Part shown: piece by piece, positions 20 to 2,210 of the stretch
Layout: every line of letters starts with the position of its first letter
How positions within the stretch are numbered: position 1 is the stretch's first letter
Source of the DNA: Planctomycetota bacterium
GTDB lineage: Bacteria; Planctomycetota; Planctomycetia; Pirellulales; UBA1268
Assembly (NCBI GenBank): GCA_018970785.1
Contig: JAGWVR010000003.1
Coordinates: 1-64,000, forward strand
Direction: 5' to 3'
DNA: 64,000 bases
Position numbers and translations under genes: made by a program
The notes under the pieces: model-generated
Told to the model about the DNA's origin: nothing
Databases searched by the model: none
The model's input: the letters and a program-made list of their open reading frames with translations, nothing else

Positions 20-1096
20 ATGAACGCTCTGCGTTTCACGCGCTGTGCCGCCGCGCTCGTGCTCGCTCTGACTGTGACGGCGGCCCATGCCGTCACGATC
101 GACATGGTGTCGGTGGGGAACGCCGGCAACGCCAACGACGCGACCGGCTACGGCGGCGTGGCGTACGACTACCAGATCGCGAAATACGATGTGACGATCG
201 GGCAGTACACGGCGTTTTTGAATGCCGTCGCCGCGACCGATACCTACTCGCTCTACAACGCGAGTATGGCGACCGACCTCAACGTGGCAGGCATTTCACG
301 AACGGGTGTTTCAGGCTCGTACACCTACAGCGTGATAAACAACGGCGGCGACAGTGCCAACCGCCCGATCACGTACGTGAGTTGGTTTGATTCAGCCCGC
401 TTTGCGAACTGGATGGCGAACGGCCAGCCGACGGGAGCGCAGAACAGCACGACGACAGAGAATGGTGCCTACAACGTGAACGGGGCGACGACGGGGAATG
501 CTCCGGCGAAGAACGCCACGAACCCCAACACGAGCGCCGCCCCGACGTTTTACATCCCGACAGAGAACGAGTGGTACAAGGCGGCGTATTACTCGCCGGC
601 GCTCAACTCGGGCACGGGCGGCTACTACACGTATGCCACGCGGAGCAACACGGCCCCGGGTAACGTGGTCGGCAGCGGTGTGAATCAGGCGAACTACTAC
701 AACGGTGTCTATTCAGTGACGCAGTCGTCGAGTTACTCGGGGAGCCAGAACTACCTGACCGACGTGGGTACGTTCACGAACAGTGCGAGTTTCTACGGCA
801 CGTTCGACCAGAGCGGGAATGTGTATCAGTGGAACGATCTGGATGGCGCAGCCGGCTCGTCTCGTGGGTTCCGCGGCGGCGCCTGGGGCAGCGTCGCGTT
901 CAACTTGTCGTCCTCCTTCAGGTTCGGGATGCCGGTCGCCCCGTCGGACGAGAGCGGCGGCATCGGTTTTCGTCTCGCAAGTCCGGTCAGCGGCCCCTCC
1001 GGCGTTCCGGAGATCGACGCAGCGGGAGCGCGCCTGGCGATGGTGCTGATCGTGTTCGGACTGGCGCTCCTGGAGCAACGCCGGCAGGGCCGCTGA
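20..1096 (+). CDS. Secreted FGE-sulfatase/C-type-lectin-fold protein with VPEID (PEP-CTERM-like) C-terminal sorting signal; candidate DGR target protein
   Basis: Signal peptide MNALRFTRCAAALVLALTVTAAHA; FGE/SUMF1 motifs (YDVTIGQYTAFLNAV, RPITYVSWFDSARFANWM, FYIPTENEWYKAAYY, DQSGNVYQWNDL, RGFRGGAW...GIGFRLAS); C-terminus VPEID + hydrophobic stretch + ERR-like tail (LLEQRRQGR). Confidence 0.88.
   Translation: MNALRFTRCAAALVLALTVTAAHAVTIDMVSVGNAGNANDATGYGGVAYDYQIAKYDVTIGQYTAFLNAVAATDTYSLYNASMATDLNVAGISRTGVSGSYTYSVINNGGDSANRPITYVSWFDSARFANWMANGQPTGAQNSTTTENGAYNVNGATTGNAPAKNATNPNTSAAPTFYIPTENEWYKAAYYSPALNSGTGGYYTYATRSNTAPGNVVGSGVNQANYYNGVYSVTQSSSYSGSQNYLTDVGTFTNSASFYGTFDQSGNVYQWNDLDGAAGSSRGFRGGAWGSVAFNLSSSFRFGMPVAPSDESGGIGFRLASPVSGPSGVPEIDAAGARLAMVLIVFGLALLEQRRQGR
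884..979 (+). other. Putative DGR variable region (VR) within the target gene
   Basis: Codons between the W of RGGAW and IGFRLAS are rich in NNC codons (GGC AGC GTC .. TTC .. TTC .. TTC .. GTC GCC .. GAC .. AGC GGC GGC), as expected from AAC-to-NNC adenine mutagenesis. The block sits at the C-terminal end of the lectin fold and ends in IGFR, as in FGE-type DGR targets. No template repeat was found to confirm it. Confidence 0.5.
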
Positions 1097-1170
1097 CGGT
1101 TGCCTGTGAACTTTATCTCTTTGACCCTTTGTCCCCTTTTGATAACCGGTGTTCGTGAGGTCGGCGCGTG

Positions 1171-1228
1171 CCCCGGCAGGAGGCCTGTTTTCCTGTCGGG
1201 GCGTCGCCGTCGCTCTGAGCGGCGGCGA
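1171..1228. repeat. Two tandem hairpins between the candidate DGR target and avd
   Basis: CCCCGGCAGG(1171-1180)/CCTGTCGGGG(1192-1201), 10 bp with one G-T pair; TCGCCGTCGCT(1204-1214)/AGCGGCGGCGA(1218-1228), 11 bp with one mismatch; followed by a T-rich run. Confidence 0.6.
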
Positions 1229-1274
1229 TGCTTCGCGTTATTTTTTGGGGTCTGCCAAGGTGGCAGGGTGGTTC

Positions 1275-2210
1275 ATGGCGCGAGCGGTGAAGCAGCCGAT
1301 CGTGCTCATGAAGTGGTACCGGGTGGTGTCGTGGATGCTCGACCGCGTGGACCACTTTCCGAAGAACCAGCGATTCGTTTTCGGGCAGCGACTGGCCGAG
1401 CGGTCGATCCATGTGCTGGAGTTGCTCGTGGAGGCGACGTGGTCGCAGGACAAGACGGCGATCTTGGCGCAGGCCAACCGCGAGATGGAAGTACTGCGGT
1501 GGCTCGTGCGGCTAGCCCACGACCGCAAGATTCTCACGGCCAAACAGTACGAGGCGGCGGCCGAGGGTATCTACGAGTGCGGCCGGATGGTGGGCGGTTG
1601 GCAAAAAGACTCCCAGCGGCGGGCGGCCTCGTCACCGCCACCGCGCAGCACCCTTGTCGGGACAGGGGTTCAATTTGTCCGGACCGTCGGCGGACGAAAT
1701 CGGACGAAAGGCGAAATCCGTCGCCGGTCGTCCTCGCTGGCGAAGACGTGGCGGCATTTCGTCCATTTGTCCGGATTCGTCCAGATCGACCCGTGGACGA
1801 ACGATCCCCTTACCGCGGCTTGGGTTGCGGCATTTTTGCCGTTTCGTCCGCCGCCCCCTCGGGGAACAACTCCGCGACCGTCGGCAGCACGTCTACGTCG
1901 TCCCTGGCCTTCCCGGTCGGCTTCCATGCCCGAGGCGGGCGACCGCGACCGCAGTTGGAGCGCTCGCGGGAAGCCCGCGGACGACGGCGCCGGCCGCCGG
2001 AGGTGGCCGGCGCGGCTGGGGGAAACCCGCGGTGTTTCCCGCGGGAGCGTGACTGGCCCCGCAGCATGGACGGCGCCGCCCGCCGACGCCCAAACCTCCT
2101 CGTCGACCCGAACCACCGCGCAGAAGCCGCGAGTCTCCCTCCGAGCGGCCGAGCGCCTCCCCCGCGGCAAGGAGAAAGAACCTTGCGTCCTGGAAAGGCT
2201 GGGCAGGTGA
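1275..2210 (+). CDS. avd-like: Four-helix-bundle protein of the DGR accessory variability determinant (Avd/bAvd) family; core about 1275-1620, with an apparently uninformative Pro/Arg-rich C-terminal read-through
   Basis: MARAVKQPIVLMKWYRVVSWMLDRVDHFPKNQRFVFGQRLAERSIHVLELLVEATWSQDKTAILAQANREMEVLRWLVRLAHDRKILTAKQYEAAAEGIYECGRMVGGWQK matches the Avd pattern (Y..V...L...P+..R....L.....L..LR..+R...+T..Q...A...+.E.GR++G.W). Start set at the internal ATG 1275. Confidence 0.75.
   Translation: MARAVKQPIVLMKWYRVVSWMLDRVDHFPKNQRFVFGQRLAERSIHVLELLVEATWSQDKTAILAQANREMEVLRWLVRLAHDRKILTAKQYEAAAEGIYECGRMVGGWQKDSQRRAASSPPPRSTLVGTGVQFVRTVGGRNRTKGEIRRRSSSLAKTWRHFVHLSGFVQIDPWTNDPLTAAWVAAFLPFRPPPPRGTTPRPSAARLRRPWPSRSASMPEAGDRDRSWSARGKPADDGAGRRRWPARLGETRGVSRGSVTGPAAWTAPPADAQTSSSTRTTAQKPRVSLRAAERLPRGKEKEPCVLERLGR
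1989..2060 (+). repeat. Dispersed double-hairpin repeat, copy A
   Basis: GCCGGCC(1989-1995)..GGCCGGC(2005-2011), then GGGAAAC(2020-2026)CCGCGGTGTTTCCC(2034-2040)GCGGGAGCG. Confidence 0.65.

What the first reader, a model, noticed from the sequence alone, without database searches (positions are those of the whole stretch)
20..1620. Candidate diversity-generating retroelement cassette: lectin/FGE-fold target gene followed by an Avd-like gene
Seen: a secreted FGE/C-type-lectin-fold ORF whose C-terminal block (RGFRGGAW-GSVAF-NLSSS-FRFGMPVAPSDESGG-IGFRLAS) has the layout of a DGR variable region with many NNC codons. It is followed 179 nt later by a four-helix-bundle protein matching the Avd pattern (…FPKNQRFVFGQRLAERSIHVLELLVEATW…LRWLVRLAHDRKILTAKQYEAAAEGIYECGRMVGGW). 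Established: Avd is the DGR accessory protein that partners the error-prone RT, and FGE/CLec folds are standard DGR target scaffolds. Inference: this is a DGR target+avd module making a hypervariable surface protein.
Basis: partly seen in the sequence, partly recalled or inferred. Interest (0 to 1): 0.85.

Follow-up and report, generated by a model that had tools for sequence, protein, structure and literature searches.

The report
DGR target and avd, RT missing
The window starts with a bacterial surface-protein gene whose tip has been rewritten by a targeted mutation machine (a diversity-generating retroelement), followed by that machine's helper gene, but the mutating enzyme and its template are cut off here and were found only in related planctomycetes.

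Summary
ORF 20-1096 is a secreted protein of the FGE/C-type-lectin family. The next gene is Avd (NCBIfam NF033474, 101.8 bits, cut-off 80). Two genomes from other genera of the same family carry a 95-98% identical Avd next to an RT and template repeat (TR). Against one of those templates the window's variable region (VR, 852-981) differs at 21 of 31 adenines but only 3 of 85 other bases (p=1e-12). Against a sister species the VR shows 22/116 differences, 18 of them at template adenines, while the next 123 bases differ once. In 101 homologues the 12 most variable residues of the whole protein fall on, or next to, template AAC codons. What is missing: homology to complete cassettes stops at about 1651, in the last codons of avd, and neither RT nor TR was found in this 69%-complete genome. 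Relatives carry other deletion derivatives of the cassette, while VR-bearing target genes occur in 39 of 74 family genomes. Best reading: a recently active DGR whose RT+TR were deleted here, leaving target and avd. Present activity cannot be shown. Known kind; the family-wide spread of targets and repeated loss of the machinery is the interesting part.

The parts
20..1096 (+). DGR target gene: exported FGE/SUMF1 (C-type-lectin family) protein, 358 aa, signal-peptide-like start, VPEI-hydrophobic-RR tail
   Evidence: PF03781 67.2 bits; 120 listed homologues, many named formylglycine-generating enzyme, one PEP-CTERM protein
852..981 (+). Variable region (VR), with 5' anchor 852-868 and 3' anchor about 961-981 identical to the relatives' template
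   Evidence: 21/31 adenines versus 3/85 other bases differ from the G038 TR; sister-species contrast; residue entropy
982..1104 (+). 3' flank of the VR: 1 difference in 123 to sister species G013; holds a 6-bp-stem hairpin (996-1011) and an imperfect inverted repeat (986-1006/1077-1097) of unproven role
1275..1651 (+). avd (accessory variability determinant); start to the point where homology to intact avd genes ends; original stop codon lost
   Evidence: NF033474 101.8 bits, PF22296 77.7 bits; 98%/95% aa identity to G038/G059 Avd; 1 and 2 aa differences in 110 codons against 22 and 28 third-position differences
1649..1652 (.). Breakpoint: RT and TR that follow avd in complete cassettes are absent from here on
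   Evidence: no RT or TR in own genome
50636..51379 (-). Exosortase domain on the same contig, possibly serving the target's C-terminal tail (inference)
   Evidence: PF09721 196 bits

Best explanation
Target and avd of a diversity-generating retroelement (DGR) that worked in the recent ancestry of this planctomycete but whose RT and template repeat have been deleted at this locus. In the complete cassette of a relative the order is target - avd - RT (overlapping avd's stop) - TR. The RT-Avd complex would copy the TR RNA with random bases at adenines, and the cDNA would replace the VR at the 3' end of the target gene, changing about 12 residues of an exported FGE/C-type-lectin-family protein. 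Shown here: gene identities, adenine-specific substitution, the sister-species contrast, the breakpoint, and different deletion derivatives in relatives. Inferred from known DGR biology: the mechanism itself, surface display through a PEP-CTERM/exosortase-like route, and a ligand-binding role. Whether an RT in the unassembled 31% of the genome still acts on this target is open.
For: Avd above curated cut-offs. G059 and G038 carry 95% and 98% identical Avd followed by RT and TR. VR against G038 TR: 21/31 adenines versus 3/85 others, p=1e-12. 42 VRs of 26 genomes: 54% mismatch at A, 6-16% at other bases. Window versus sister species G013: VR 22/116 with 18 at template adenines, 3' flank 1/123. 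Top 12 entropy residues of 101 homologues = AAC-template residues plus residue 304. Homology stops at the avd 3' end; different remnants in G044, G025, G023, G014. Own genome: no RT, no TR.
Against: The genome is only 69% complete and the locus lies at a contig end, so absence of RT and TR elsewhere proves little. The junction at 1651 rests on one metagenome assembly with no reads to check. Avd shows strong purifying selection, which suggests it was functional until recently and would also fit an intact machine elsewhere. The window VR carries a 6-nt insertion and 3 non-adenine differences to the nearest known TR, so its own template was never seen.
Confidence: 0.7

Rival explanations
1. A DGR is complete and active in this organism: the break after avd is an assembly artefact, or RT and TR sit on an unassembled chromosomal contig or mobile element and serve this and other targets in trans.
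For: 69% completeness; VR-bearing contigs end near the VR more often than expected, p=0.016; window and sister VRs differ recently while neither genome shows an RT; intact cassettes were found on contigs of 2.7 and 9.9 kb, the kind easily lost in binning.
Against: Among the 36 genomes at least 90% complete, 20 have VR matches but a closely related intact RT only G038, too few for incompleteness alone. Deletion derivatives with different endpoints occur in four other genomes. No TR in own assembly.
Confidence: 0.25
2. No DGR: ordinary positive selection on binding residues of paralogous FGE-fold genes, with gene conversion keeping the rest alike.
For: The genes are multi-copy and recombine.
Against: Changes sit on template adenines, at codon positions 1 and 2 of AAC codons with C kept at position 3 in 87%; rare synonymous codons between them are conserved across genera; a non-coding template with all adenines exists beside a DGR-type RT.
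Confidence: 0.02
3. The second gene is an unrelated four-helix-bundle protein (23S rRNA intervening-sequence type) next to the target by chance.
For: The families are related; PF05635 scores 17.7 bits.
Against: PF05635 stays below its cut-off of 33.8 while NF033474 and PF22296 are well above theirs. A 95-98% identical gene is followed directly by RT and TR in two genomes.
Confidence: 0.01

Closest known systems
Complete cassette of the G059 genome, JAIXPT010000183.1 (L040), and RT-TR half in G038, VGYR01000422.1 (L030)
   Same: Target type (G059), VR skeleton, Avd 95-98% identical
   Different: Those have RT and TR; the window does not. VR differs at adenines and by a 6-nt insertion from the G038 TR
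Diversity-generating retroelements in general (survey PMC8144416; Bordetella phage BPP-1 as prototype)
   Same: Avd, adenine-specific VR/TR differences, C-terminal VR in an FGE/C-type-lectin-family protein, exported target
   Different: RT and TR missing at the locus and from the assembled genome
Degenerate and remote DGR loci of Thiohalocapsa PB-PSB1 (PMC10907252) and remote targets of cyanobacteria (PMC7517822)
   Same: Several FGE/C-type-lectin targets per genome, loci lacking RT or TR, suspected action in trans
   Different: There a complete RT+TR is known in the same genome; here none was found, and the erosion is seen in several genera of one planctomycete family, with exported PEP-CTERM-like targets

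Membership tests
Diversity-generating retroelement | Accessory protein Avd | tested here: met
   NF033474 and PF22296 above cut-offs; last codons and stop lost
Diversity-generating retroelement | Target gene with C-terminal VR in an FGE/C-type-lectin-family domain | tested here: met
   PF03781, VR at residues 279-321 of 358. Fold not confirmed by structure: model pLDDT 41
Diversity-generating retroelement | VR differs from a template repeat at template adenines | tested here: met
   Against TRs of relatives: 21/31 A, 3/85 other
Diversity-generating retroelement | Template repeat in the same genome | tested here: inconclusive
   None found, but the genome is 69% complete
Diversity-generating retroelement | DGR-type reverse transcriptase at the locus | tested here: not met
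   Homology ends in the last codons of avd; no RT follows. Hence filed as an incomplete DGR locus, not as a complete DGR
Diversity-generating retroelement | DGR-type reverse transcriptase in the genome | tested here: inconclusive
   RVT_1 and RT protein searches empty, 69% complete assembly
Diversity-generating retroelement | Identical 3' block of VR and TR followed by a boundary (IMH-like) | tested here: met
   ATCGGTTTTCGTCTCGCAAG shared, then AGTCC in VR against AGCCC in TR
Diversity-generating retroelement | Hairpin or cruciform just behind the VR (known from BPP-1, PMC3240598) | tested here: inconclusive
   6-bp stem, 4-nt loop 15 nt behind the VR, only in this genus, shuffles p about 0.1-0.16; absent in the complete G059 cassette
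Diversity-generating retroelement | VR polymorphism in living populations | not testable with these tools
   No reads available; sister-species contrast is the nearest substitute
PEP-CTERM/exosortase-sorted surface protein | C-terminal PEP-CTERM signal and an exosortase in the genome | tested here: inconclusive
   Exosortase on the same contig; the window's tail has VPEI + hydrophobic + RR but no PF07589 hit, whereas the G059 target hits PF07589

The most novel reading that the evidence does not exclude
In this planctomycete family the mutating machinery roams: a horizontally moving avd-RT-TR cassette visits genomes, rewrites resident chromosomal VR-bearing genes that share one template skeleton, and is lost again, so that dozens of species keep hypervariable surface genes without owning the enzyme at any one time.
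Probability: 0.2. Interest if true: 0.75.

Novelty: new member of a known kind. Interest (0 to 1): 0.5.

Why it matters
Surveys that look for the RT first do not see targets lying away from it, as PMC8144416 says of its own method. Here VR-bearing genes are found in 39 of 74 genomes of one family and closely related machinery in very few, with several separate deletion derivatives. If this holds in closed genomes, it makes the question of how target genes outlive, or share, their mutator directly testable, and it suggests that searches by VR skeleton would find many more DGR-shaped surface proteins in planctomycetes.

Tried and rejected
Direct repeats within window 1-4000: no TR. Own-genome DNA search with VR and with TR: only VR-like paralogues, no TR. 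RVT_1 and RT protein in own genome: none. AlphaFold model of the target from 101 close homologues: mean pLDDT 41, not used, no fold search made. PDB by sequence: Avd matches Bbp7 (E 0.012) and Avd (E 0.09) only weakly; target none. Viral contigs: one 28% identical RT, not a close relative. Plasmid and phage records: only matches under 60% identity, so no named mobile carrier was found. A repeat of about 47 nt flanking the G059 cassette was first taken for a mobility mark, but its downstream copy coincides with the 3' end of the neighbouring AAA gene, so it was dropped. Horizontal transfer of avd is only suggested: third-position differences 0.20-0.25 against 0.33-0.36 for lysA. A hairpin as homing signal was not confirmed. 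Paper searches for DGR with PEP-CTERM or with Pirellula: no hits in the held library, which does not hold most subscription papers.

Full report
What is there. The window is base 1 to 64000 of a 92,883-base contig in a 69%-complete genome assembly; it is called planctomycete here because related records of the same family are named so. ORF 20-1096 encodes a 358-aa protein with a signal-peptide-like start, an FGE/SUMF1 domain (PF03781, 67.2 bits) and a C-terminal VPEI-hydrophobic-RR tail. ATG 1275 starts an Avd gene, above the curated cut-offs of NF033474 and PF22296. Its frame has no stop until 2210.

The missing half exists elsewhere. In 74 genomes of the same family, bAvd matches occur in six and RVT_1 in sixteen. 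G059 (JAIXPT010000183.1) and G038 (VGYR01000422.1; names) have an avd 95% and 98% identical to the window's, followed by an RT whose ATG overlaps the avd stop, with LPIGNLTSQ and YMDD motifs, and a TR at or just behind the RT's 3' end. G059 also has the target upstream, so its order is target-avd-RT-TR; the G038 contig starts just before avd.

Adenine signature. With a codon alignment to the G038 TR the window VR differs at 21 of 31 adenines and 3 of 85 other bases (Fisher p=1e-12); with an unguided alignment it is 20/31 and 4/85 (p=4e-11). The 6-nt insertion in the window VR means its own template differed slightly. In 42 VRs from 26 genomes the mismatch rate is 54% at template A against 8, 6 and 16% at C, G and T. 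Those VRs were found by similarity to the TR, which biases the overall level but hardly the choice of adenines. Between the adenines, codons such as TTT, GCA and AGT are kept across genera more than codons in the upstream flank. In AAC-derived codons positions 1 and 2 vary freely and position 3 stays C in 87%.

Independent check with proteins. In an alignment of 101 full-length proteins (window protein plus 100 homologues from the large protein collection) the 12 positions of highest entropy in residues 26-325 are eleven AAC-template residues plus residue 304, next to the window's insertion. Residues there belong to the NNC-encodable set in 98% of cases; in residues 30-280 of the protein 9.7% fall outside that set.

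Sister-species contrast. G013 (same genus) has a target at the same place in front of the CHAP-crcB-lysA block (gene names from domain hits and my reading of the ORFs). Behind the VR, to past the stop codon, the two sequences differ at 1 of 123 bases; within the VR at 22 of 116, 18 of them at the 31 template adenines. That is the pattern left by retrohoming after the flank last shared ancestry. The upstream bodies differ, so recombination has acted too.

Breakpoint. Identity with G038 and G059 stops at about 1649-1651, in the last codons of avd. Downstream, from 2159, the window is collinear with sister genome G015. Other genomes hold other remnants: G044 keeps the target and about 20 codons of avd, joined to sequence resembling the 3' end of the AAA gene that lies behind complete cassettes; G025 keeps the target, an internal RT piece and the post-TR end; G023 keeps the RT C-terminal part and the TR; G014 keeps the target start joined to the middle of avd. 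The different endpoints argue for repeated real deletion, though each single junction rests on a metagenome assembly.

Targets without mutator. TR-like matches occur in 39 of 74 family genomes, and in 20 of the 36 that are at least 90% complete; in a wider draw from the order seven genomes outside the family have one. The closely related RT is intact only in G038 and G059; G015 has a more distant RT (44% identity) with a different TR. In the window's own genome the window VR is nearest to the template (4 non-adenine mismatches, unguided); other copies have 7 to 29, the most decayed of them without significant adenine bias, as expected if copies lose contact with the template at different times. 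VR-bearing contigs end near the VR somewhat more often than expected (p=0.016), so part of the absence may be assembly dropout.

How it most likely works. By established DGR biology, RT-Avd copies TR RNA with errors at adenines and the cDNA replaces the VR. The product would be an exported lectin-like protein with about 12 variable residues; an exosortase gene lies on the same contig. Surface display and ligand binding are inference, and the fold could not be modelled. Whether the locus is a fossil, or still served in trans from the missing part of the genome, is undecided; I put the deletion of RT+TR at this locus first (0.7) and a complete machine that the assembly missed second (0.25).

Comparison. 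DGRs in PVC bacteria, FGE-type targets, remote targets and degenerate loci are all known (PMC8144416, PMC10907252, PMC7517822). This is therefore a new, incomplete member of a known kind. Its unusual side is the spread of one VR skeleton through a family in which the machinery is mostly not found.

Noticed in passing
window 1990-2056: Dispersed palindromic repeat of about 55-70 nt with more than 20 further copies in this genome and a similar number in sister genome G015; another copy at window 9675-9746.
   Followed up: partly
window 50636-51379 (-): Exosortase (PF09721) domain on the same contig as the target.
   Followed up: partly
G000:C36 (L044/L163): A 952-aa ORF carries two FGE/VR-like domains in a row, only weakly template-like now.
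   Followed up: partly
L040 (G059:C58), 1-66 and 9827-9892: The 9.9-kb contig with the complete DGR has identical 66-nt ends and may be circular or end in a repeat; it also has an IS91-type transposase ORF and an ORF with a ubiquitin-family hit (3.6e-14).
   Followed up: no
L039 (G015:C72) 4521-4643 and 6232-6354: Sister genome G015 has a second, different DGR (Avd 37% identical to the window's) with its own VR/TR pair differing mainly at adenines.
   Followed up: partly
P0127 (protein collection): An avd relative (88% identical) with an unrelated C-terminal tail, on contigs up to 22 kb: possibly another avd cut at its 3' end.
   Followed up: no
L030 (G038:C422) 813-2132 (-): The RT frame of G038 runs open through the TR, so the template would be translated as an RT tail (NWNNNAFNLSSSNRN...); in G059 the frame is closed before it.
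   Followed up: no
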